64,000 nt of DNA. Origin: Isoetes taiwanensis (Eukaryota; Streptophyta; Lycopodiopsida; Isoetales; Isoetaceae). The notes beneath the pieces were generated by a model. That model did not search any database, had not been told where the DNA came from, and saw only the letters and a list, made by a program, of their open reading frames with translations. Position numbers and translations under genes: made by a program. The stretch lies in contig JAJEKV010000085.1 in NCBI GenBank assembly GCA_021234155.1, positions 1,870,896-1,934,895 of the forward strand, written 5' to 3'. Positions 26 to 36,080 of this stretch are shown in pieces (within the stretch, counting starts at the first letter, position 1; the number at the start of each line of letters is the position of its first letter).

Positions 26-1029
26 ATGAGGAACCAGGTGCATCAGCTGATCCACTGGGCCACCCTATTGATGAATGCCCAAGAATATGCACCTGCTCCA
101 CCACCACCTCCACCGCTAGCTCAGCAAGGCATCGAGGAAGGTCCACAGCAGGAGGGGCAGGACAATCAGGGGAATGTCAGAGACAGGAAGAGGAAAAGGA
201 GAAACAGAAGGAGTCCAACACCACCTAGCTCCAGTTCATCAGACACTTCAGACAGCCATGACAGTTCTAGCTCAGATAGTGAGTCCGACACTCCACAGGT
301 AAGAGCCAGGGCAAGGAAGGAAGACGATTATCAAAAGAAAGTTGACAGTGCTATGAGCAATGTGTGGAAGACTAGGAAGTTGGGTCAGTTCCTCGTGGAA
401 GGATAGGTCGTATGGAGGCGTAAGCCCGGCTTGATTTAGATGGAAGAGTTCGCAACTCTTATGGCATGAAGGATAAGGATATAGGGAAAGTTGCTACAAA
501 GAAACTTGATAGGAGCAAGAGAATCTGGTGGAAAGGCTACGCAAAGTCCAACAAGCTCAAAAGGAACAGCTTGCATTCAAGACCTTCAAAGAAGGCCTTT
601 CGCAGACATTATGTGCCCAGTCACATACTAGCAAAGATCCCAAAGAGCTCTACAGATTGAACCAAGGTACCTTGTCGTAAGCAAAGTACACAGAGGAATT
701 CATGCGACTTCAAAGCTCCATGTTCCCGGAGTTTCGAAAGGCAAGCGGTTGAAACTTACATTGAGGGATTGAACAAAGAATATCAAGAGGCTAGTCCCAG
801 CGATCAACCCTAAGTCAAGAGCGTAATGAGGATAAAGCCATAAGTTTGAAGAAGCTCCAAAGAACGCCAGTGAGAGACAAATCGCCTTCAAAGGAAAGTC
901 ACGACAAAGTACCAAGGGCAGCAACAGAGTAAGCAATCGGCAACTACGCCATCAGGAGGCCAGCAGCAAGGAAGAGCTCAGGGTAAGAACTTTGGGGACC
1001 GTAAGCCGCAGAATGCATCAGGGGGCAGC
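26..1029 (+). pseudogene. gag region, frame-broken
   Basis: The first readable block (26-406) has a proline run followed by an Arg/Ser/Asp-rich stretch, as in nucleocapsid-proximal gag of plant Ty3 elements. The frame then changes repeatedly (466-660 and later), and no single frame reaches the zinc knuckle that begins after 1030. The true gag start is upstream of the window. It would encode the capsid/nucleocapsid of the element's particle. Gag identity rests on position and composition, not on a recognisable capsid motif. Confidence 0.6.
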
Positions 1030-2562
1030 ATGTTAAAGTGTATTCTAGACAGCCTGACGAAAGAGAAGAGACAGGAATGTATTGAGAAGAAGCTATGTTT
1101 CAGGTGCTTCCAGCCAGGGCACCGAACACATGATTGCCCATTCGTCATGCAGGCAGCCTTGGCAGAGCTTATGGATTGGGATTCACCAACAGAAGCGGAT
1201 GAGGACGACGACCAGCATGAGGTCCAGGACTTCATAGATGGTGAGTGCCACATATGTGCAAACATTGAGTCAGATGACATTGAAAGTCAGTCAACAGTCA
1301 TTGCGGCTGAGGGGATCATAGATAGCAGTCCATATCTAGTATTGATAGACACAGGTAGCTTGCACAACTTCGCCTCTCCTAGGCTGGCTGCCCTAATGAA
1401 GAACAAGGTATTGAAGTCTAAGCCAAGGCCAGTTGCTATGGCAAACGGCGCCATTCGGCACACTAAGGGAAGGAGGATTACATTCGACATAGACCTTAGT
1501 GGAAGTAAGTGGCCGATGGGGGCGGAGGTTATGGAGATTGGAAGGTATGACCTCATAGTAGGAATGGAGTTCCTAAAGCCAGCGAAAACCATGATAGACT
1601 GCGACCGCAATGAAGTCGCCATGACAGCACCGGACGGCACCAAATTCATAGTGAGAGGTAAGAAGACAGCTTCTTCTATGCAGTGTATTTCTTTGAAGCA
1701 GCTAAGGAAAAGTATAGAAAGAAATAAGGTGGATTACATTTTGAGATTGGAGGCAATTGAGCCCAATAAGCAGGATGGGAACGACCAAAAGGGGAAGCAC
1801 TTGCCCAAGCCAGTAGCAAGGCTTATTTCGGAATTCAAGGATGTATTTCCGGATGAAATCCGGCAACTACCACCTTATAGGGGTGTGGAGTGTGAGATCA
1901 CACTAGCACCAGATGTTAAGCCTACCAGCAAGGCACCGTACAGGATGAGCACACCGGAATTGATTGAGCTCAAGAAGCAACTCCAGGAATTGCTTGAGCT
2001 TGGTTTTATTAGAGCAAGTGTGTCTCCTTTTAGAGCACCCATACTCTTCGTGAAGAAGAAAGATGGCAGTTTAAGAATGTGCATAGACTATCGCCAGCTC
2101 AACAAGCAGACGATAAAGAATAAGTATGCATTGCCAAGGGCAGATGATTTAATGGACCAGCTCCAAGGAGCAAAGGTATTCTCTAAGATTGATTTGAGGT
2201 CAGGGTACCACCAAATAAGAATAAAAGAAGAGGATATCCATAAGACCGCCTTCAGAACGCGGTATGGTCACTTTGAGTTTACAGTAATGCCCTTTGGATT
2301 GTCGAATGCTCCAGCAACTTTTATGCGCCTCATGAATGACATCTTCAGGGATTTTCTAGATGAGTTTGTCATTGTCTTCTTCGACGACATTCTAGTCTAC
2401 AGCAAGTCCATTGAAGATCATAGTCAGCATTTGAGAAGGGTGTTAGAAAAGTTGAGGCGGCATCGTTTGTATGGAAAGCTCTCCAAATGCCACTTTGCTA
2501 CTGAAAGAGTGGAGTACTTGGGCCATGTCATATCGGCGGAAGGGATCTCCACCGACCCATAA
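1030..2562 (+). pseudogene. gag zinc knuckle, protease and reverse transcriptase part of pol
   Basis: One 510-codon frame. Residues about 23-36 form a CCHC zinc knuckle ([14 protein letters not shown]). About residue 105 is the aspartic protease site LIDTGS. The reverse transcriptase begins around residue 285 and carries the catalytic box FFDDILVYS near residue 450, where most relatives have YLDD. The frame stops just after the HVISAEGI motif at the end of the RT palm/thumb, and the rest of pol continues in a different frame after about 2557, so a small indel has broken the polyprotein. It would copy the element RNA into DNA in cytoplasmic particles. Confidence 0.92.
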
Positions 2563-4702
2563 AGATCGGGCGATGAGTAGATTGGCCAGCTCCAAAGAAT
2601 GTGGCAGTAAGAAGCTTTCTAGGTCCGGCGGGGTTATTACAGGAAGTTCGCGTGAAGGACTTAGCCAAGTGGGCGTCCCCTTTGACGGACCTCACTAAGA
2701 GTGTTAAGGTGAAAGATTGGAGAACACATTGGTTAGAAAATGTTCAAGCTTCATTTGAAAAGCTTAAAGAGGCCTTAACAACAGCACCAGTGCTAGTTCT
2801 GCCAGATCCAGACAAGGACAAGATAGTAGCAACAGATGCAAGTAAGATAGCAACAGGTGGAGTCCTTATGCAAGAAGGAAGAGTAATAGCTTATGATTCC
2901 AAGAAGTTGAATGACACCGAGCAGCGCTATCCAACCCATGATCAGGAACTTCTAGCTATTGTCAGAGCTCTTCATATTTGGAGGCATTATTTGCTTGGGA
3001 GGAAGTTTCAGTTAGATACTGATCACCAGAGCCTCCAATACATCTTTACCCAACCACTTCTGAATCTAAGACAAAGGAGGTGGATGGAATTCCTAGAAGA
3101 GTATGACTTTGAGATTGCTTATAAGCCAGGTAAGTTGAACGTGGTCGCCGATGCTCTTTCTAGAAGACCTCTTGAGACGAGAACTCATTGTAATGCTATA
3201 TCAACTCTTTCGAGTGGATATGGCAAGAAAATTGAAGAGACACTACCATCTGATGGTGATTTCAAGGAGGTATGGGAAAGCCTTTCTAGAGAGGCTAGAA
3301 CAGATAAGGAACGGGAGGCCTTCAAGCATTATAAGAAGGAAGGCAACTTGTTGTATCATAAGCATAAGTTGTGTGTGCCCGAATCATCAGGGGTAAGGAA
3401 GCTAATTCTTCATGACACACACAACAGCCCAATAGCAGGGCATGCAGGGTTTATGAAGACCTACTTCAAGATTCGAAGTAGCTACTTCTGGCCGGGAATG
3501 AAGAAGCAGATAGCAAGATATATTCGTGAGTGCCAGTTGTGTCAGCAAACCAAAGCGGAGCAGCTTCGAATTCCAGGAGCTTTGGAACCTCTAGCAGTGC
3601 CGAATGCGAAGTGGGAAGTGGTAAGTATGGATTTTATCACAGGACTTCCCAAGACTCTTCGAGGCAAGGATGCATTGATGGTCGTAGTAGACAAATTATC
3701 TAAGATGGCACATTTTGTGCCTTGTAGAACTACCGACACAGCATTAGATACTGCCAAGCTATTTGTGAAGGAGATTTTTAGGCTCCATGGCATGCCTCGG
3801 GAGATAATATCTGATAGAGATTCCAAGTTTATGAGTGCTTTTTGGCAGGACCTCTTCAGCACCATTCAGACGAAGCTCTCCATGAGCACGGCATATCATC
3901 CCCAAACAGATGGTCAGACGGAGAGGACGAATCGAATCATTGAAGATATGCTTAGAAGCTTTGTGTGGAATAAGCAGTCCAAGTGGGATGAGTATATCCA
4001 CTTGGTGGAATTCGCCTACAATAGTGCCAAACAGGAGTCATCTCAGATGTCTCCTTTCATGGTAAATTACGGGTACCAGTGCTTAACCCCGGACACTTGG
4101 CACAATCCCGTGTCAAAGATTGAAGTGTCCCAACAGATGCTAGGAGATATGCAGCAGTTGGTGGAAGAAGTGAGGGGTTACCTCCTAGCAGCAAGAAGTC
4201 GGCAGAAGAGTGTAGCCGACAAGCACAGGACAGTAAGAGAGTTCAAAGTAGGCGATAGCGTGTGGTTGAAGATCAAGGTCAAGCAAGGTAAGCTTCGGAT
4301 TGGGAGTTGCAAGAAGCTTGCCCCTCGATGGGCTGGTCCGTTCAAGATTTTGGAGAGAGTGGGCTCCCAAGCCTACAAGTTGGACCTTCCGGCCCATCTC
4401 AAAGTTCACAAGGTTTTCCACGTAAGTTTATTGAAAAGGCACAATCCTAACCCTGATGAGGTTTTGGATACTCCAACGTTGTTGGAAATGACTGAGGAGC
4501 AGGTTGAAATTGCGCCTGAGTTACTTAGAAGACTAGGAGGTCTCAGTTCCTCCAGTATTTGGTCAAGTGGAAGCACTTGCCCGTGGAAGACGCGACATGG
4601 GTATTGAAGCAGGATTTGGAGAAGCAATACCCAGATTTCATGAAGGAGTTTGATGGGCAAGTCGTCTCCGACTTGGTCGACCCCGACTTGCCAGGAGGTT
4701 AG
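2563..4702 (+). pseudogene. RNase H, integrase and chromodomain part of pol
   Basis: Continuation of pol after the frame break. It is open from 2601, where the RT connection region is recognisable although altered. RNase H is marked by ATDASKIATGGVL and DTDHQSLQYI. Integrase follows: an H..H..C..C zinc-binding N-terminus (HAGFMKTYF to CQLCQQTKA), then the catalytic acidic residues in MDFITGLPK, IISDRDSKF and PQTDGQTERTN. A further frameshift near 4530 truncates this frame at 4607. In the +1 frame the sequence reads YLVKWKHLPVEDATWV, a chromodomain core, and runs to a stop at 4702. The chromodomain places the element among chromoviruses. Confidence 0.93.
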
Positions 4703-7164: not shown

Positions 7165-7978
7165 TTAATTCATCCAGCTCCTGCATGAAGCAGCACCATG
7201 TGGCCTTACCATACTGAATCCGAGGTCACAGATCTTTGATACAACCAACCTGTATGTCTTACAAATCAATCTTCTTAATGAACATGGTCGGAGTTGTCGC
7301 TAGTCTGTCTGATGCCATTACTAATGGCTATCAGATCAGCTCCATTATTGAGAAACTTGCTTATATTGAGTGCAACACGATATATGGCTGCAATTGCCAA
7401 TCTGATTTCTGGATGCAATTTTTATTTCATAGCCATACATTTTTCCACAATAGCATATATCTATCTGCTACTTCTAAATCGAATGACAAATTTGGTCTTT
7501 CTGCAATATGATGACCCAAATACTTCAATTCCAAATGAATGCTTTCATTTTTTGCAGCCAGTTAAACAGAGCTTACAGAGCTTGACCAAGATCTCTCCAA
7601 GTTAAATTTCAAGACCCATAAAGCAGAACATGCCTCAGAAGTAGAGTTTGAGACCCATTAAATGAAACAGAGTTAAGAAGTCTGATTTCATCCTCTCAGG
7701 TTCGATTTATAAATTTGCAGCCAAAAATTTTCAATTTGTAGCCATAGAATCATGATTTCGCCCCATTAAAGAGGCAAAAGGATTAGAAAACTCTGTTATG
7801 GGGCATTTCGTCAAATTTGCACTGAATACTGTACTCGGTATGAGCTACTTGATTAAATGTTCAGGCATTTGGTGTCAGATTGAATTAGTATAATCTCTTG
7901 CATTGCAGATCATATATATAATATGAATTTTTGCTTTATTCCTAAGTTTCTTGAATATGAATTTGTTTGTGGTCTATT
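7165..7978. repeat. 0.8-kb duplicated sequence, copy A
   Basis: Nearly the same as 8820-9616, with scattered substitutions and a few small indels. It contains overlapping short open frames of about 90-100 codons conserved in both copies, but I recognise no protein. The LTR retrotransposon inserted at its left edge. Both copies end near GTTTGTGGTCTAT. Confidence 0.85.
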
Positions 7979-25200: not shown

Positions 25201-25865
25201 TTGTTATACTTATATTCAGACGAGGCTGCCTTCCACCAATGAATCCATCTTAAATACATTGTGGTTTTTTATTTGCTACTTGCATTGTCATAACAGATAG
25301 GTGCTAAGCAACTGAGTATATGTATGTCAATCTTACAGAGCAAGGGCAGAGCAAGCAAGAGCAAGAGCAATTTTGAAGCGGATTTCATAGGGCAGAAGAG
25401 TCGCTGAAGCAGGTATGAAACATATCAGAAACAAGGGTGCTTGAGACATGGAGTGCTTGAAACAGTAGTGCTTGAAACATATCATTTACTTAACTCTTGC
25501 ATTTTGAACACGATTGCAAATTAAACGGGAGTGTTGCATCACTCCCGTTTCAAAGATTCCCTTTAAAAAAACACCAAGTTTCTAAAATAAGCCTTTTTTG
25601 ATAGTTGTTAAGAATTTCTAGAGGTTTGCATTTTTTTTCATGCCATTTTGGCCCATTATTAGACGAAAACTTTGTACTTATGAAACAGAAATCATAAAAA
25701 TAGCGAAATTTAGGCATAGACTTGAAGAGACTGAAAGCATTACAAAAAACAAGCACCAGAATAGAAAGGAAAAAAAAGTACTATGTTTTTAATAAATTGT
25801 TGTACATCAATATTGAAGATTCATTGTAATAAATAATGATAATTTTAATATCACGATGTCAAAGA

Positions 25866-28800
25866 TCTACATCATAGTCCTCCTCATTCTTTTTTCTTTG
25901 CTCTCGCCATCTCGTCATACATTCTATCCGCTCCTTTGCTTTGGAGACTTGAGTTTTGTATCCTCCTTGTCCTTCCGGAATGGTAGCTAAAGCTACTTCT
26001 TTAAGCTCTGCAAAGGTTGCCTCATCGTCTAGTGAGCTGGAGAATGGAGGTCAGATCTCGAGGATGTTAGTTTAGCATAATCGGATGAAGACTTGGCCCC
26101 TAGCTCTTGATGTTCATCCTGGTAAAGTAGGTAAGGCAAACCGATCTCATCTTCACAAAATTAACGAAGATCCTTATCAATATCCACGGCTACACAGTTG
26201 CGGCCCTTCTTAAGTGCACATGCGATAGTAGTACCAGAACCAGAGAAAGCATCAAGCACCCAGTCTCCTGGACGCGAGAACATGTCCAGGAGATGGTTGA
26301 TGAGCTTTTGTGGTTTCTGGTAGTGATTCACAATCCTGCCTTGTGCAGTTGGGTCCTGCAATTTCTGTAAACTCAAGGACGTTTGAGAAGTTTTGACAGG
26401 CGGCAGTGTTGAAGTGTTCCATGGTCCTCTTCCTATCAAAACTCCAATAAGCTACATGAAGGTACTCTACCTTGCTAAGCAACCTTGGTCCTCCACCATG
26501 GTAGTTGATGTTCATTTTGTACCTAGTAAAACATTTAAAGTGATGTTTACTTAGCAAAAACAAGAACACACTTCGAAAACCAGAAGCAGGAAATACTATT
26601 CCGGAATACACTACGTAATCAAAGAGAAAAGTAACTGTATTCTGGAATAAGACTTACCAGACAAGGTTTTCATATCCTGCCTGAACTGGAGAACCAAAGT
26701 GGTTTTTGAAAGCTGATTCTACCAAGCCAGACTGCATGCTCGAATGGAAAGTAACTAAACGCCAATGTTTAGCCGTTGTGATCTGCTTGATTCCATCAAT
26801 AAAAGCATTAAACTCTGAAAATTTGAAGGGCTGGTCGTCATATCTGCTGTCTTTAAGCTTAAACCCGTAGGGAAGATCAGCAATAACCAAAGTGAAGTCC
26901 TGTGGCTTAACCGTTCCGACTAGGTTCGTGCAATCACCATGAATGATTGAATATAAATTGTTTTGATCAAACATGCTGAATCTCTCGTAATCGGATGGTT
27001 CTAACTCAACAGTTCTTCTTTCAGCTAACGACCTCTCTTCCCGTGCTGTTCTAACCAAATGCATGAAGCCCTCGGGAAGGTCTTTGTTTTTCTTTTTGCT
27101 CTGAGAAAAAACATGACAACAACTGTAAGGAGATCGTGTGTGCAAAGGCGAGTAATGTTGAGAGTACTTACCCAGCCCTCAAAATTTGGTGCATATTGCA
27201 CAATTCGCTCGTCAGAAGTGGCTACAGGGTAGAGTTCCTTGCACCTTTCCCATGTCTCTACGTTTAGCTGCTCCATCAAACATGTTTGACATGTTATGGC
27301 GTTCTTTTGGCTGCAAGGCGTTAAGGAAACAATGAGTAAAAAGTAAGAAACAAGGCAAAGAAGAAGAAAAACAAATAAAAGTCAAGCTAAATGTATTCTG
27401 GAATACAAACTGGTTAACTGGTGATGTTACCTCGAAACAAAATGCATTGTGTATTCCGGAATACACATTGCTTCTCTGAAGAAAGCAATGTGTATTCTGG
27501 AATACACAATACTTTTTTAGAAGAGGACATGTGTATTCCAGAATACACATGGCTTCCTTTACATGTCCATTGTGTATTCCGAAATACACATTGCTTGTAT
27601 CTAGAACGACATTGTGTATTCCTAATACACAAAGGCCCCCAAGTGAAGAAAGGTATGTGTATTCGAATACACTATCTACCATGTTTTGGGACTCTAACGT
27701 CTAAAGAGCAAAGTTTGTGGCAGAGATCTTACTTGTGCAATTCCTTTGACATTTCTTCTAGGCTAAACTCCTTGTCAACAACTTTTTGGAGAAGCCTTTC
27801 CAAAATCTCTGTGTCGGAGAAGCCCTGCATTTCCCTCCAGACGGTAATGGTCATTTCTTTTTTTTGGGCACGCGTCAGGGTTTTTTCTTGGCTGTCTCCT
27901 TGCCCTTGCTCTTTAACTCCCCTCGCTCGAACATTGTGAATATCTGGTCCTGGAGTTCCCAAATCTGTTCAAGCAGATTTCACGTCAAATAGTTGGTTTG
28001 CTATTCTGGAATACATTTTGTGCTTACCTTGCCATCTCTAAAAGCTAACTGGAACCAGTTGTCGTGGGGAATAAGAGACTGCCTTTTGTTGGCCTCGTCA
28101 TATTTCAGGCAGCATTCAATGGCACACGCCTCCTTAAGCTCCAAGGAAAACGCTGGCTTCTTCAGGTCCTCACCGTACTTTTCCTTGAAAATTACGTACT
28201 CCCTGTGCATAAACCGGATCTTGTCGACAAAGCTCATCTTTAGTTTGTACTTTCGTTATCGATTGTGGGTGTTGGCGATTTTTTGCTCTTCATCCAGTAA
28301 GACCACGGTGAGACGGCCCTGAGGAGGGCGGAGAGGTACCTCGGGTTCTTCTTTTCTTTGTAAAGTTGCCTTCTTGCCTTGAAGCTATGATTCCCTCCCA
28401 AGACGTAGTGAGTGTAGGTGTCAGCATTTTCTCTGTCATACTCCTGGGGGGTTGTGCACTGGTCCCTGTCAACAAGGACAACTATTGGGGCCACATGAGC
28501 ATTTGGATTGCTCCTTATTACATCTTTTCGAGTTCCTCAAGTGATCGGCATAAATTTTTTGCGAACACAGGAAGTGGCCTTTCACCGACTTCATTTTTTG
28601 GAGGAAGCTTCATTGAAGTGGCCCGGCAAATAAATGACACCTTGCACAAACTTGTGCGGGTTAATCTCTTCCATTTTTTTCAGATGTTTTATCAACTTTT
28701 TTTCTTTAATAGCAACACCAGGTGCTTTACCCTTTCCTTCTTCTTCTTAGGTTCCTCGGGGACTTCTATGATTTCAAGTCTGCATGTTTTCCTCTTCTTT

Positions 28801-29421
28801 GGTTCTTTAGCAGCTATGGTCTCTCTTAGCGTGCTAAGTTTCTTTGGCGCAGCATGAGGGGTTCTTCCTCCTCTTCTTCCTCAAAACCTTTATCCGATGA
28901 CCTCCCCAAGAACTAGCGTAACTAGGAGAAGGTGGTGATTGCGATCTTTCTCCATCGATTGCTTTCTGACTCACCGACGGAAAGTCCTCGCTTGTCTTTG
29001 GAAAAACTGTTTAATTAATGAACACAGGCTTCGTTTTAGCCGTAGTGTGAAAAAAAATTTGTACAAATGCGGTGGTTGCACACCCGACAATTTTAAAGAA
29101 TGCAAGGTCCACAACAATGAAGCCTTGGGAGGTCTTGAAGGATAGCCTCCCCGTTTGACCTCCTTGTCCCAAGCACCCTGGAGACATCTTTTATTGTCCC
29201 AAGGTTAACAAACATGGAGTCGGCGTACCTTTTTGTTACCAAAGACTTTTACGGGGCGATACAAAACGCGTCGGTGTCTTTATTTTTTCCATCTGCCCCC
29301 TGAGTTACGAACCACTGCGTTTGAAAGTTTTCGTAAATAGCAGGTTCGTCCGTGTCAGCGGTGTGCTTTTGTGATGAGATTTCTTTGATGCCCTCTTGCT
29401 TCCTTCTTCCCTGCCACTGAA
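25866..29421 (-). pseudogene. ParB-like domain fused to class-beta DNA methyltransferase
   Basis: Read on the minus strand. A degenerate leader (29421-29150) is followed by a lysine-rich linker and a ParB-like domain (about 28720-28270): LPVFAKNLCRSLEELE, then APIVVLVDRDQ and YVLGGNHSFKARRQL, the GGNH..A signature of ParB/Srx-type NTPase domains. Exons then splice in phase: to 28028, 27964-27733, 27310-27172, 27100-26658, 26522 onward. HGDCTNL and IADLPYG (26878-26864) are the catalytic motif IV; YQKPQKLI and LDAFSGSGTT (26253-26227) are the cofactor-binding motif. This IV-before-I order is class beta (N6-adenine or N4-cytosine). DLPY rather than DPPY or SPPW leaves the target base open. A stop at 26161 and at least four frame changes mark a pseudogene; a charged tail continues to 25866. 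Confidence 0.75.
27393..27672. repeat. Palindrome array 1, 41-bp period, in a methyltransferase-gene intron
   Basis: Six units at 27449, 27490, 27531, 27572, 27614 and 27657, plus an outlier at 27393. Each is GTGTATTC + centre + GAATACAC (or a one-base variant). The centres are CG, TG, CA, CG, CT and none, in that order. Centre-to-centre distances are 41, 41, 41, 41.5 and 42.5 bases. The whole array lies in intron 27732-27311. Confidence 0.95.
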
Positions 29422-29466
29422 ACGTTTAAAACAACCATGTTAAGACAGAAATGCAAAAGAAATTTG

Positions 29467-29980
29467 TATTCCAGAATAACATTTGCTAATCTTATGCCCT
29501 AAAGGCCAGAAAAAGACAAGAAAACAAGCTAAAATGTTGTCAGTCTAAGTCAATTTCGTGTATCTAAATTAGACTTAACAGAGTAATTTTTAACATAAAA
29601 TGTTATGCATTTGCGACTAAAAAGTGTGTGATTTTAGTAAAAAAAGCAAGCGTTCTCAAAACTACAAGCAAAATGTATTCCAGAATACACTTTGCCCATC
29701 AAACGAAGAGCAAAGTGTATTCTGGAATACACTTTGCTCACTGGCGAAGTGCAAAGTGTATTCCGGAATACACTTTGCCTATCGAGACGAGCAAAGTGTA
29801 TTCCCCAATACACTTTGCCCTTTTCAGCGTAGAGTAAAATGTATTCGGAATACACTTTACTCTTCACCCGAAAGGGCAAAGTGTATTCCTAATACACTTT
29901 GCACTTCGCCGATGAGCAAAGTGTATTCCGTAATACACTTTGCTTTTCGCTCGATGGGCAAAGTGTATTCGAATACACTT
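29467..29980. repeat. Palindrome array 2, 41-bp period, between the divergent genes
   Basis: Eight units with centres near 29681, 29723, 29764, 29804, 29847, 29889, 29929 and 29970, spaced 40-42.5 bases, plus an outlier at 29467. Most units are GCAAAGTGTATTC + centre + GAATACACTTTGC. The centres vary (CA, TG, CG, CCC, G, CT, CGT, none). The last unit is the perfect 16-mer GTGTATTCGAATACAC, as in array 1. Unit five has altered outer arms (AGAGTAAA / TTTACTCT) that still pair. Confidence 0.95.
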
Positions 29981-30238
29981 TGGCCTCTGTAAAAAATCGA
30001 AAAACCAAAGAAAGACGTACTATGTACTTTACATGCTTACCTGTCCATTGTTTTCGCTATGTGAATCGAATACAACAAATATATATATTAATCTAAGAAG
30101 GCGGGCTGGCGACTAAATCTCTGAAGCGGAATATGCAACCGAGGCGCCGAATTTTCCTTTTTAAAGGTAGGCAACTGTCCGGTTGTGTTTTTCTATGTGA
30201 TCACGAATACGTCTTGTCCAAACACTCACGGATAAGTG

Positions 30239-30324
30239 TATTCGGAATAGCATTCTTGCACACACACGCGGAAAATCTTTGCACCTTACGAATACTATTC
30301 GAATAGCATTTGTATTCTCGAATA
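30239..30324. repeat. Three further palindrome cores before the plus-strand gene
   Basis: TATTCGGAATA (30239), TATTCGAATA (30296) and TATTCTCGAATA (30313) are variants of the array core with different flanks (AATAGCATT). They lie in the presumed promoter or leader of the plus-strand gene. Confidence 0.8.
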
Positions 30325-30379
30325 GCATTAGTCCAATCGACTTGTGAGTTAGTAACAAGCCCACAATTTTTGCGGTTGT

Positions 30380-33300
30380 TTGAAATGGTTAACCGCCGTG
30401 AACAAACTTCCACCACCATTTGTTTGCCCAAGTACCTCTACTTCGGATGGAACACAAGACGGAGATGCTTCTTCAACACCTACCTCGACAAGGTCTTTGT
30501 TACTTCTAGAAGAAACTCCGAGTCCAGTAACTAGTAGACTGCCACCACCTTTCCAACCCGCTCCAAGTCCAATAGGAAACCGGCTGCCACCACCTTTCCA
30601 ACCCTCACATTTGCCGCGTAGCAATCTTCCACCACCATTTGTTCCATCCCCGACACTACAATGGCTCGACCTCAAAGAAATTTTTGAACGGACTACCTCC
30701 GTAGTTTGTTGTTTCTCCATCTTCACTTACACATGCCGGGAATACAAATTTCGGCGTTCAAGAAGGCTGCGAGATTCTCCATCGTTTCTCCCACCACGAT
30801 TTCACTACAAATGAAGACGACCTGCGGCATCTACTCCTCTTCACACAAACGTGGTGACACATGGGTTTGCAGAATTTCAGTCTGCTATAAGAGAGATGTT
30901 CGATCGAACTCCCTGTGAAGACGCTACAACAACTTTCGCTGGCACATCATATGCTGGCCCATCTCCTTCATTCAACACTTTGCACCTCCGCCTTTTTAGA
31001 GATGCGACTTCACGTGGTTTGTTCTCCTCTACAAGCACGCCACTAAGGGCGAGGAGGTCACCCCCGTGAGTAGAACTCTCTTGAAGATGAAGACACCAAC
31101 GGCGTGCAACGAGATTACATGTTCTCTAGCCATCCACCAAAAAATTTAAGGTGGATTATGGTGTGAGAGCATGCTCCTCTCAAGAAGAAGAAACCTTATG
31201 GACGAGCATAAAATGAGAAGACTTTTAAGAAGTAAATGCTGCTCATTGGGTTGCATCAACAAATTTAACATGTCTAAATTACGAGCAATTAGAGACAACT
31301 ACACCAATGACATTGGCTGACCCGAATGCCTACTTGGCCTATCATGTAAGGCGGACCGCAACACCTTCTTGCACTACATTAACCGGCAAGAAGTTTGCCG
31401 AAATGCTTTATGGTTGTCCACCGCTTTAGGGACTACCGGAATGTCTAGAATACACAAAAGATCGGACAAAAATCCAGCAATTGATGATCATTGTGGACCA
31501 AGAAGAGTTGTAACCATGCATGCCCTTGTCTGCTGTGTGTCATGGATGGAGAAATATTTTAGAGAAACATGTGAGAAGTCGCCTAACAAAGAACATGTAT
31601 CATTTAACCGATAACATCACCAAAAAGATGTTTTTTAATGAGTACAAAGAGACTTGCACTCAACTTCAGCACATCTCTTACTCACACTTCACCAGATTGT
31701 GGAAAAGTGAATTTGGTTTAGTGAAAATTCCGAGGAGACATAGAATGTCTGTTTGCTCAAGGTGTGCAGAATTAAAAAGTCAAAGAGAAACCGCAAAGAC
31801 GTAAGTCGAAAAGAAGTAAGCTCATGTTCTTCAATCTCTCACTTGTTTTAAAAAAATGCTTTGACCTTATTTCTTCTACAGATATTGTGCAACAGAACCT
31901 TGCCAGACATCGTGAACAACAAGCAGCAGAGAGAAGAAAGCTTGCCAAACACAGAAAAAAAGCTCTTGAACGTCCGCTGCAATATATGTCTGTTGTGATT
32001 GATGGAATGGACCAAAAAAAAACTACTCTACCACATTTCTTGAACATTCCTAAAGATGTGCGAGAGGAATGTTTTGTTAAGGTCCACCTTGTAGGAGCTA
32101 TGGTCTTCAAAGGAAGTCTAAAGTGCAAAGTATTTTTGACATATCCAAACTTGCATGGTGACCCGAACCTCACAATTACAATTCTTAACCAGGTCCTGTG
32201 CGAGCAAGAGCAATTACCACCAGTGCTTTACCTGCAACTTGACAATACTACAAGGGAGAACAAGAATCAAACACTCTTTGCATACTGTGCTATGTTAGTG
32301 GAGCTAGGGATCTTTAGAAAAGTGAAGCTCGGTTTTTTACTTGTAGGCCACACTCATGATCAGATTGACCCGGATGTTCAAGAGATTTTACAGTATGCCT
32401 TAGAAGGAAGAAGGCTTTCTCCCTTCCTACATTAGTTCGAATTATTGAAGATTCTTACACTCCCACTCCAGGTGATCGATCTTCTTAAAGAGATGGCGAT
32501 TTCGAGAGAGTTTGTTTTCTCTCAACGTTCGGGAGAGAACAAAGTCGTGAACAAGTTGAATGATCTCACCTTTCAACATCACATCAAGTTCTACTTGAAG
32601 GATGGCGAGTTTCTTCTGAGGGAAAAAGTATACCACAACTAAGGACTGGAGTCCACAAGAGGGATTACGCTTCCTTAAATATATTCCGGACACTTCCTTC
32701 ATAGAACGTCTTTGAACAACTTCCTCTCAAAAATCCTAAGGAGTCCAAGCGTAAGAAAAAAGTACCCCGAGTCATCCTTAAAAGCCATTGAAAATGGAAT
32801 TTCCTCGAGGCTTTAAGTACTTCTTAGAAGAAGATCGGATGTGGTGGAGTAATTTCTTTCTCGAACAAAAAAATTGTTGTGAAAAATATAGCTCTAAGAC
32901 AGGTTGCAAGAACCATTTCGATGGCCTAACACCTTCCATCAACCCCAAAGACCAAGCGAGTCCAAGCAAAGCTACATTAGCACCGCATTAGAAGAAAAGA
33001 TGAGGATCGAGTCATGTACCTCCCGGACCAAGACGCGAGGAATGAACCTCAAGGTAATATCACAGAAATTTGCAAGGGTATGCTAATTGCTCTTCCAACT
33101 GAGGAGGATGACAAAGGTCGACCTTTCTGGATAGCAAAAGTGCTTGACACCGTCAAGGAGGAAGGCTTAGTCACTAAACTCAAGATTCATTGGCTTGCAA
33201 CCGCGATCGAGAAAATGCTTTTGAAGGTAGATATGAGTTAGAAATGAGAAGCCAAGGAAAAGGAAGAAAGTCCAAGAAGGTGGGTTGTAGGGATGAGCTG

Positions 33301-33585
33301 ATCCTTAATGATGTGACTATATTGTGCTATGATTTTAAATTGAAATCTGACAATCGTCTACGCCAGAGGACTATCAATTTGCTTAAAAAAGCTTGTAATT
33401 ACGAAGAAGAGGATGAAGAAGGTGGTGGCAATGCTACACCATCTGTTGATAGTGATGAGGAAGATAACTCAAGCACTTCCTCTAGTGACAGTGAAAAAAG
33501 TGAAGGTGATGAGGATGGTATAAATGAACATGATGACGTCTTGGATCCCTCCTTCATCACTCCTCACACTTTTGCACATAACTGA
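30380..33585 (+). pseudogene. Putative transposase-like protein (DUF7869-like), broken
   Basis: The N-terminal block (30380-30814, no ATG in its frame) has four LPPPF motifs in a Ser/Pro-rich stretch. About 31660-31800 reads SYSHFTRLWKSEFGLVKIP then CSRCAELK, a probable zinc-binding CxxC. The core frame at 31824-32435 has VIDGMDQKKTTLPHF, LQLDNTTRENKNQ and LLVGHTHDQID. These three acid-bearing motifs match, from memory, the uncharacterised family called DUF7869, which looks like an RNase H-fold (DDE-type) nuclease. Frame changes near 31450, 32390 and later break it. The C-terminus (33240-33585) is acidic and Ser-rich. Position between the TTAA ends and opposite the methyltransferase gene suggests it is the transposase; this is inference. 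Confidence 0.6.
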
Positions 33586-36080
33586 GTCTTAGAAAAAAAC
33601 TGTAAATTTTGTTGTGAATATGAAGATTGTATCTTCAAATTTTGAGAATACTACAGTTTCAGTTACGGACTAACTTCAATTTTTTGTTAAATATTTTATC
33701 CTCTGAAATTAGGGTTTCTCACGTAAAATATACTTCAAGAACATTCTATTTGCTAAGAAAAATGACACTTTCAAACAGTCAATTCTTTCGTTGCACAAAA
33801 AAATTAGTCACTTTTGGGGGGGTCAAAATAGAATTTCATGCATCTTTTTTTTTTTTAACCTCGTTTTACCCCCTTTTGTAAAAAAAAGGGGAATCTTTAA
33901 GGAATATTCCTTTCGCTCTCGTTTCAATGATTTGCTCCCGTTTAATACGCAACTTTGTTTTTGCAGGTATCAGATCATTTCATTTGAAGAAAGAGGAATC
34001 GCTGGTACATGGAGCCAAAACGGCTGCCTACAGAATCGATTCTGCTCATGGAAAATGATTCCAGTCCTTCGCAAGAGCGGCACAGGTGCTCTTATGATCC
34101 CAATTATTTGGATTCTTTGCATCCCAAATTTACATTCGTTGGTAAGTAGTAAAATAAATGATCCCTTTTTATGCTTGAAGCCTTTGTGTATATTGCAGGG
34201 GTCGGTTTAGGTCAATCGAGGACATTTACAAATCTGGGAGACTGCTGCACAGCTCAGAAGGGGCTAAAATATTCTGATTCTGTGCATTCTAATCTACGTC
34301 TTCTGTTTTCAAACCCTAAGCAACATGAGGCAAAATTCCAAACATGTTTATAGCTTGCAAATTGAGTCTAAAGCATTCTCGCACGACTAACTACGGTGGC
34401 TAGATTCCAGTACGAATTTCTGCTAAATCATTGGTAAGATCTTTGTATATTTCATATTGTTGAGTTCGATAGCCTGGATTCCAAATACCTATCAGATCTA
34501 AAGTCTGTTACTTTCGTTCCATCAATCCTCTATGGTTCCAACTAGGTTGCAAGAGAGCTCCATAAAATTGTGTGCATCTCACGTTCATTTAGTTCTATCT
34601 GAGGTACGCTCTCATGATAGCCTTGCAAATTTGCTGGACAACTTCTAAATTCTGTTCGATATGTAGATTGCATGTTTCGCAAAGGAAGTGGAATATGTAG
34701 ATTGGTGGGCTTGGCAAAAAGTTTGAGAAATGGTGGAAGCAAATAAGAGGTGGTTTTTTGAGTCTTCATGTGTCCTTTCCTCAATCAGCCTCTCTGCCCA
34801 CTAAATCAGTCGTTCCATAGGTGAGACCAATTGAACATACGTGAAACCAATTGAACATACAGTCTTTTACATTTTGGCAGTATAGATATATTATCTTTCT
34901 GCCCACTAAATCAGTCGTTCTTAAGTGGCTATTGTGACTGTGTGCTCAAGAGGCAGTGCAGAATGAGGTTAGGTTTTAGATATTTTAACAGATTTGGTAA
35001 TAATATTGGTTGTGCTTGATGCAGAAAGGGCGAATTTTAGTTCAGCAGTCTCCAGCATTGGCACTTGCAGCAAAAAGTGTGGATTTGAGTTTTGAAATCT
35101 TGAACACGTAAGTAACTCATGTTTGTCTTTCTCTGTTAAGCACAAAAATTCAAATCCCAACGGCTTTGGAATGATGGGCTTGGGTCTAAATTAAGGAAGC
35201 TCCTTTTCAATATACAGTTTGAATATAGTTTTTGCAACTGAGAAAGGTTTCGTGATGGTTTTTTGATGATTTTTATTTGTAGACAAATATGTTTGCCATA
35301 GTCGCTGAGGAAATCTTGAAGATCTCATTGGTGCTTGAAGACTTTTTCTTAGTAAGCTGTGAAAATGCTCAGGTTTTGATCATGGGATGATTTTTAAAGC
35401 TTTGTAGCTCAGGCGATAGATTCTTTGTCTACACACGTGTCTACACAGTTGGCATGTGTGTCTACACACATGCTTGCTTTCTTGCTTCAAAGGCAGATGA
35501 AGAGGGAGATAGTAGATTCTGGGTAAGATGCTTAACCGACCAAGATCAAAGATGGATTTTCATTTTTTTCACTATTAGAGTATTCAGAACCTCCACACTA
35601 GATCTGCCATTGCATTTCTTAAAATTGACTATTGACTATTGTTATACAAGTTAACATAAATCTACCTTGGATTTTTTAAAACTTATGAGCATTTCATTGG
35701 ATCGTTTTTCAGACTCAATTCTGCTACTCATGCATGTTTTTTATCTGCAACAGGTCATTTTTTCCTTTTAATGCAGTCCAAGATTTAAGAGCTTCAATAA
35801 GAAGATGAGTATAAAAAATTCTTGCTCGCCAGGTTCTGTACCGTGGTCTAAATGCCATCTTCCATGATGACGAACTTTGATTTACAATCTATGTTGTTAA
35901 TAAGTATCTATCTGTCCTATTGCATCATATGTAGTTAACTATCAAAGTTTTATAGTCCTATCAGATTGTTTTAGCCGTTATATATATGCTCAGAAATGTT
36001 TTGAATTCCCTTTCTCTGAAGGCCGAGCAAAAATACATTCCAGGACATTAGCTCGGCAACGCCGGGCACCCGTTTACTAG

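What the first reader, a model, noticed from the sequence alone, without database searches (positions are those of the whole stretch)
25521..33945. 8.4-kb TTAA transposon encoding a ParB-like/DNA methyltransferase protein and a DUF7869-like protein
Seen: inverted ends with TTAA on both sides, two divergent genes, and palindromes confined to this interval. Known: TTAA duplications occur in piggyBac and Kolobok; bacterial phages and plasmids often carry ParB-methyltransferase fusions. Inference: a eukaryotic DNA transposon that carries its own DNA methyltransferase, with a transposase family not formally assigned. I know of no described plant transposon with this gene pair.
Basis: partly seen in the sequence, partly recalled or inferred. 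Interest (0 to 1): 0.92.

Follow-up and report, generated by a model that had tools for sequence, protein, structure and literature searches.

The report
Quillwort transposon carrying ParB-like DNA methyltransferase
A jumping gene repeated hundreds of times in what is probably a quillwort genome carries, besides its likely mobility enzyme, a bacterial-style DNA-binding and DNA-methylating protein together with regular arrays of palindromic sites, so it may mark its own DNA; a similar gene pair is already known from algae.

Summary
The element is real, but its ends were misplaced. Copies show that the terminal inverted repeat starts 14 bp outside the reported TTAA, which lies inside it. The true element is window 25507-33959 (8,453 bp), flanked by TTTG; 21 of 22 copies carry perfect 4-bp target duplications of varied sequence, and two are each other's empty site. 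So it is not a TTAA (piggyBac/Kolobok) transposon. Assembly size matches Isoetes taiwanensis; the 25-bp terminal pattern matches 1,417 places, control 0.

DUF7869 is predicted to be a DDE-type transposase (RNase H fold, three conserved aspartates), perhaps with a BAH-like domain. The opposite-strand gene encodes a ParB-like fold fused to a beta-class N6/N4 DNA methyltransferase; median dN/dS is low in both genes. Palindromes (ancestral core probably TGTATTCCGGAATACA) form arrays 40-42 bp apart, in the window only in introns or between genes; 6,502 in the genome, control 6; 3 of 6 short copies keep them near both ends.

Best reading: the ParB-like protein binds these arrays and methylates the element's own DNA. 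Binding and methylation are inferred. A ParB-methyltransferase accessory gene is already published for an Ectocarpus Sola1 transposon, so this is a new variant.

The parts
25507..33959 (.). whole transposon, 8,453 bp
   Evidence: ends shared by 20 fetched copies, 4-bp target duplication TTTG
25503..25506 (.). left target-site duplication TTTG
33960..33963 (.). right target-site duplication TTTG
25507..25531 (+). left terminal inverted repeat (25 bp; the TTAA lies inside it); a second, inverted copy of the AAACGGGAG motif follows at 25542-25552 (one mismatch)
   Evidence: 722+695 genome matches of the 25-bp pattern, control 0+0
33935..33959 (-). right terminal inverted repeat (25 bp)
26161..26522 (-). 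ParB-methyltransferase gene, last exon with methyltransferase motif I (FSGSGT at 26230-26247); a frame break near 26385
   Evidence: PF01555; motif place; exon borders inferred from GT/AG
26658..27100 (-). ParB-methyltransferase gene, exon with motif IV (DLPY at 26867-26878)
   Evidence: borders inferred
27172..27310 (-). ParB-methyltransferase gene, linker exon
   Evidence: homologous stretch open in L023; borders inferred
27733..27964 (-). ParB-methyltransferase gene, exon ending at the splice site where ten of eleven relatives also end
   Evidence: borders inferred; frame breaks
28028..28700 (-). ParB-methyltransferase gene, ParB-like exon (GGNHSFKARR at 28369-28398); frame breaks; its 5' part may reach about 29400 by analogy with L023
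   Evidence: (fold of relatives)
27392..27671 (.). palindrome array 1, in the intron between 27310 and 27733
29674..29977 (.). palindrome array 2, between the two divergent genes; as single-stranded DNA it is predicted to fold as one long hairpin
   Evidence: 80-nt arms, 91% complementary; z -24
26596..26650 (.). two single palindromes in the last intron of the methyltransferase gene (a further one at 28001-28014 in the first intron)
   Evidence: one mismatch each
30237..30326 (.). two weaker palindromes upstream of the transposase gene
30385..33585 (+). transposase gene (DUF7869 protein), start uncertain; frame breaks
31776..32435 (+). open frame with the presumed DDE core: aspartates at 32001-32003, 32241-32243 and 32367-32369
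   Evidence: PF25273 E 2.1e-35; fold

Best explanation
This is a cut-and-paste DNA transposon of a quillwort (the assembly size matches Isoetes taiwanensis). The DUF7869 protein is most likely its DDE-type transposase, perhaps with a C-terminal BAH-like chromatin-reader domain; the element has 25-bp inverted ends and makes a 4-bp target duplication of no fixed sequence. The opposite-strand gene makes a ParB-like protein fused to a beta-class N6-adenine/N4-cytosine DNA methyltransferase. Most likely the ParB-like part recognises the element's palindromes (ancestral core probably TGTATTCCGGAATACA), which sit as phased arrays, and so brings the methyltransferase onto the element's own DNA. The mark would keep the element accessible, or license it for the transposase, against host silencing. 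Shown: ends, duplications, two empty sites, the gene pair, low dN/dS, the arrays and their link to the element. Predicted by models: the two folds. Inferred: that this protein binds these sites, that it methylates DNA, and what the mark does.
Confidence: 0.5

Rival explanations
1. The palindromes are binding sites of the transposase (internal sites that help assemble the transpososome), and the ParB-methyltransferase acts elsewhere, for example at the ends.
For: 3 of 6 short copies keep the sites near both ends (L017, L018, L020), as expected for a sequence needed in cis for transposition; the 40-42 bp phasing suits protein assemblies of any kind.
Against: In full copies the arrays are about 1.9-2.4 and 4.0-5.1 kb from the left end, far from both ends; a 16-bp palindrome fits a ParB-type dimer site (parS length recalled).
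Confidence: 0.25
2. The arrays act through their strand structure: long hairpins or cruciforms, or hairpin RNA that feeds small-RNA pathways.
For: Array 2 of the window is predicted to fold as one hairpin (z -24); in L023 the whole 352-bp array is a self-inverted repeat at 95% identity, next register 81%.
Against: In the other 15 of 16 copies tested the best register of array 2 scores at most 1.3 times the next, so the single palindromes, not the large hairpin, are what lasts.
Confidence: 0.12
3. The palindromes are heat-shock-type elements (TTCnnGAA) that switch the transposon on under stress, as in some retrotransposons (recalled).
For: The core contains TTCnnGAA, and array 2 lies between divergent genes.
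Against: Positions beyond that core, not used to pick the sites, are conserved too (T 87%, G 75%, A 71% at -1 to -3); sites with 0 or 1 bp between the halves are common (67 of 208, though some may be assembly errors); array 1 sits in an intron.
Confidence: 0.08
4. The methyltransferase gene is a passenger without function in the element.
For: Captured genes are common in DNA transposons (general knowledge); the window gene and many copies have frame breaks; the probable Ginkgo relative has lost motif IV (reads DISQG).
Against: Low median dN/dS, domain order and an exon border kept between lycophyte and fern, and the same kind of fusion in a brown-algal transposon (PMC12477816).
Confidence: 0.07
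5. A TTAA transposon (piggyBac or Kolobok).
For: TTAA at both apparent ends; one of 22 copies has TTAA as its duplication.
Against: The terminal repeat continues 14 bp beyond TTAA in the copies, and the duplications are other 4-mers in 20 of 22.
Confidence: 0.01

Closest known systems
Sola1-1_Ec32 of Ectocarpus (Dinatale et al. 2025, PMC12477816; passages, outline with abstract, and one part of the reference list seen)
   Same: [quoted passage not shown] those authors suggest self-binding and self-modification
   Different: 21.5 kb against 8.4 kb; brown alga against lycophyte (relatives in Ceratopteris and probably Ginkgo); no palindrome arrays are mentioned in the passages seen; homology of its transposase to DUF7869 could not be tested
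ParB/Noc/KorB proteins with parS-type palindromes (bacteria, plasmids)
   Same: predicted ParB fold; 16-bp palindromic sites (parS length recalled)
   Different: GxxR motif absent; fused to a methyltransferase; sites in arrays phased at 40-42 bp; ParA partner not looked for
Phage ParB-N6_N4 methyltransferase fusions (PMC12704722, passages read)
   Same: same two domain types in one protein
   Different: spliced plant transposon gene; three relatives of the ParB part gave no significant PHROGs match (one row at E 0.72), and an IMG/VR scan confirmed no relative
Mos1/retroviral-integrase type DDE enzymes
   Same: RNase H fold and three conserved acidic residues
   Different: third residue is Asp; extra BAH-like region; 4-bp varied duplication
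Fungal TET/JBP-carrying DNA transposons (PMC12730594, passages read)
   Same: DNA transposons that carry a DNA-modification enzyme, discussed there as counter-silencing
   Different: dioxygenase against methyltransferase

Membership tests
piggyBac / Kolobok (TTAA transposons) | TTAA target duplication | tested here: not met
   21 of 22 copies have perfect 4-bp duplications, TTAA in 1 of them; TTAA lies inside the terminal repeat
Sola (Sola1) | 4-bp target duplication | tested here: met
   that Sola1 makes 4-bp duplications is recalled (PMC3627910 states it for Sola2)
Sola (Sola1) | transposase homologous to curated Sola1 transposases | not testable with these tools
   Repbase is not held; two papers looked up for it are not held
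Sola (Sola1) | ParB-methyltransferase accessory gene opposite the transposase, as in Sola1-1_Ec32 (not a defining feature of the superfamily) | tested here: met
   precedent
DDE/D transposases | RNase H fold | tested here: met
   [not shown]
DDE/D transposases | three conserved acidic residues | tested here: met
   D132 37 of 39 (2 gaps), D213 39 of 39, D255 38 of 39; in the window 80 and 42 positions apart; that these three are catalytic is inferred
DDE/D transposases | inverted termini and target duplication | tested here: met
ParB family | ParB fold of the N-terminal domain | tested here: met
   predicted model only (pLDDT 66): top 4, rows 1-14; sequence searches give nothing over cut-off
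ParB family | helix-turn-helix DNA-binding domain | tested here: inconclusive
   several rows align to model residue 521, but with rmsd 5.4-14.6
ParB family | nucleotide-binding P motif GxxR | tested here: not met
   GGSH or GGNH in the 11 relatives, the window and L023; motif from PMC12704722
ParB family | palindromic cognate sites | tested here: inconclusive
   16-bp palindrome arrays exist, binding not shown
ParB family | ParA partner | not tested
   no dedicated search was made
beta-class N6/N4 DNA methyltransferases | PF01555 match over cut-off | tested here: met
   62.4 bits against 26.7 for the joined window exons
beta-class N6/N4 DNA methyltransferases | motif IV before motif I | tested here: met
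   DLPY exon precedes FSGSGT exon; DLPY departs from the usual DPPY/NPPY (recalled)
beta-class N6/N4 DNA methyltransferases | methylates DNA | not testable with these tools
   needs native-read or enzyme data

The most novel reading that the evidence does not exclude
A plant transposon that runs a self-addressed DNA-modification system: its phased palindrome arrays work like parS loading sites for its own ParB-like methyltransferase, which writes 6mA or 4mC on copies of the element (autonomous and non-autonomous) and thereby tells the transposase and the host which DNA is the element. This would be a ParB-parS-like address system at work in a plant nucleus.
Probability: 0.32. Interest if true: 0.87.

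Novelty: new variant of a known kind. Interest (0 to 1): 0.68.

Why it matters
Whether vascular plants have enzymes that write 6mA or 4mC on nuclear DNA is disputed (recalled). Here is a multicopy plant element with a candidate enzyme of low dN/dS and a candidate address sequence (thousands of palindromes), which makes the claim testable from native long reads. It also gives the uncharacterised Pfam family DUF7869 a likely function, points to a ParB-like protein with its possible sites in a plant nucleus, and shows transposons exchanging methyltransferase and array modules.

Tried and rejected
TTAA transposon: rejected, see above. Virus origin: IMG/VR scans with the ParB and DUF7869 alignments gave 126 and 37 pattern matches, none confirmed. 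ParB by sequence: nothing over cut-off in Pfam, PHROGs, NCBIfam or PDB (weak rows such as DUF6551 E 0.035 and 0.069 and TIGR03764 ParB E 0.039). Rfam and tRNA scans of the window: nothing. The DUF7869 profile search of the PDB gave 18 rows, all xylanases at E about 0.3, taken as chance.

The 350-bp large palindrome was tested in 16 copies; strong only in L023, so not taken as the main feature. A first attempt lost sites and was replaced.

Copies L003-L022 were chosen because two facing termini stood at suitable distance among the 100 listed places; other pairs (for example on C23, C50 and C54 there, C232 and C256) were not fetched, so copy statistics are not a random sample. L023/L024 came from the methyltransferase search instead. 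L021 (inverted-duplicate copy) fails the duplication test. In one search sites were picked by GTATTC..GAATAC (one mismatch), so conservation of those 12 bases is by construction. The site list is capped at 100 rows (50 distinct places on contigs C1-C21, clustered), 5 of 50 had no terminus match within 15 kb, and the 2.6% assumes even spread. Of 10 methyltransferase hits on listed contigs 4 had no exact terminus downstream. In one search pairs with saturated dS or under 61 codons were dropped: kept A-A 21 of 21 for each gene, B-B 14 (methyltransferase), 17 (ParB) and 21 (DUF7869) of 28, A-B 15 (ParB) and 49 (DUF7869) of 56; no A-B pair of the methyltransferase was usable; pairs are not independent.

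Not done: genome-wide DUF7869 count (the PF25273 search was sent 16 times and never answered), comparison with Repbase Sola1, a look at the Ceratopteris or Ginkgo genome for palindromes, and a paper search aimed at palindrome arrays in transposons. After re-checking the calls I lowered the best explanation from 0.55 to 0.5 and the novel case from 0.35 to 0.32, because the helix-turn-helix alignments have high rmsd.
Full report
WHAT WAS CHECKED FIRST. The window holds TTAAACGGGAG at 25521-25531 (+) and 33935-33945 (-), as reported. Between them run a minus-strand gene with a PF01555 methyltransferase match and a plus-strand gene with a PF25273 (DUF7869) match. The genome G000 has 1,658,258,908 bases in 1,110 contigs, which fits Isoetes taiwanensis (1658.30 Mb in 204 scaffolds and 909 contigs; PMC8566536, passages); the identity is inferred from size. 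That assembly was made from nanopore reads polished with racon and pilon, so frame breaks in repeats may be errors as well as decay.

ENDS AND TARGET SITES. I fetched 20 copies, chosen as facing pairs of the terminal motif. The 14 bp outside TTAA are conserved too, as an extension of the inverted repeat, AACAnnnTTGCnnATTAAACGGGAG, with a single or double substitution in one end each of L008, L012 and L014. Outside that stand 4-bp duplications: 20 of 21 elements including the window have a perfect one, of varied sequence such as TACT, CAAT, AGTG, CCAC; the exception L021 is an inverted-duplicate copy. A 22nd copy, L023/L024, has TTAA there. The window element is therefore 25507-33959 with TTTG on both sides. 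L005 and L010 lie in two copies of one repeat at different places, and the joined flanks of each align through the empty place of the other (only the loci in hand and the window were searched). The 25-bp pattern occurs 722+695 times in the genome, its reversed control 0+0.

SELECTION AND MOSAICISM. In 15 long copies dN/dS medians are 0.39 (A-A) and 0.10 (B-B) for the methyltransferase, 0.46, 0.11 and 0.13 (A-A, B-B, A-B) for the ParB part, and 0.24-0.28 for DUF7869; single pairs range from 0.05 to 0.76 (dropped pairs are listed under Tried and rejected). The copies are mosaics: a left block (methyltransferase, about 0-3.2 kb) and a middle block (ParB 5' exon, array 2, start of the transposase gene, about 3.2-5.5 kb) each come in two forms, about 54-79% identical to the window across forms and 78-95% within, while the right block (transposase core) is 86-98% identical in all copies that have it. 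All four combinations occur: A/A window, L003, L004, L008; A/B L011, L013, L015; B/A L006, L009, L012, L014, L016; B/B L005, L007, L010.

THE PALINDROMES. In the window, 16 of 18 matches to GTATTCNNGAATAC (up to 2 mismatches) lie in the element, against 2.2 expected in the whole window; none of the 12 stricter matches falls in the five inferred exons or the DUF7869 frame. Over 21 elements 208 sites were found: the bases between the halves are most often CG (62), then TG (30), G (27), none (25) and CA (21), which suggests an ancestral CCGG decayed by deamination and small deletions (inference). Bases outside the picked core are conserved (T 87% at -1, G 75% at -2, A 71-79% at -3 to -5), and the two arms of a site agree above shuffled arms at -3 and -6 to -9 (0.43-0.74 against 0.32-0.56). 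Of 143 neighbour distances under 100 bp, 85 are 40-42 bp, about four helical turns. The core is the same in both haplotypes. Genome-wide TGTATTCNNGAATACA occurs 6,502 times, reversed control 6. Of the 50 distinct listed places 45 lie within 15 kb of a terminus match, 2.6% expected under even spread. Among six short copies L017, L018 and L020 keep sites near both ends; L019 has three at one side, L021 two, L022 three. In L023 nine sites at 41-42 bp make up an array that is one 352-bp self-inverted repeat (95%; the other 15 copies show no such contrast).

LINKAGE WITHOUT USING THE ENDS. The PF01555 search of the genome scored 150 of 1,443 candidates, all 150 over the cut-off. Of the 10 hits on contigs covered by the terminus list, 6 have an exact terminus 635-653 bp downstream and 4 do not. 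The best hit, followed up without regard to ends, proved to be a complete 8,373-bp element with both genes. A genome-wide DUF7869 search did not complete.

HOW IT MOST LIKELY WORKS. Shown: a transposon with inverted ends, 4-bp duplications, a DUF7869 gene and a ParB-like methyltransferase gene of low dN/dS, and phased palindromes that several non-autonomous copies keep. Inferred: the ParB-like protein binds the palindromes; its methyltransferase modifies the element; the mark counters silencing or labels the element for its transposase. The title of PMC12695648 (listing, start of abstract seen only) associates adenine methylation with permissive chromatin in eukaryotes, which would fit.

WHAT IS KNOWN. 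The Ectocarpus paper (PMC12477816, passages) describes Sola1-1_Ec32 with a ParB-like plus N4/N6 methyltransferase gene opposite the transposase, proposes self-binding and self-modification, and cites Iyer 2011 and Petroll 2025 for green and red algae (reference list; neither read). So the pairing idea is published. My searches listed no paper on it in land plants and none with the term DUF7869. The 4-bp duplication and the same kind of accessory gene make Sola1 the likeliest superfamily, but the transposase comparison could not be made.

Noticed in passing
L003-L016 and window element: Module exchange: left and middle blocks come in two diverged forms in all four combinations, over a uniform transposase core.
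   Followed up: partly
L017-L020, L022: Short copies (2.8-4.3 kb) keep the ends and, in several, arrays and a scrap of a methyltransferase exon (L017, L018, L020), around other internal sequence.
   Followed up: partly
L021: Inverted-duplicate (foldback) copy whose flanks are also mirrored, without a target duplication; may be an assembly artefact.
   Followed up: no
L023 coordinates 7481-7829: Nine palindromes form one 352-bp self-inverted array at 95% identity.
   Followed up: partly
window 874-4604: Retrotransposon pol frames (protease, reverse transcriptase, RNase H, integrase, Tf2-1-like SH3).
   Followed up: no
P0107 (Gb_17912): A probable Ginkgo gene with remnants of the same ParB-methyltransferase fusion, motif IV changed.
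   Followed up: no
window 25542-25552: The left end carries a second, inverted copy of the terminal AAACGGGAG motif, making a small hairpin; by eye the right end does not.
   Followed up: no
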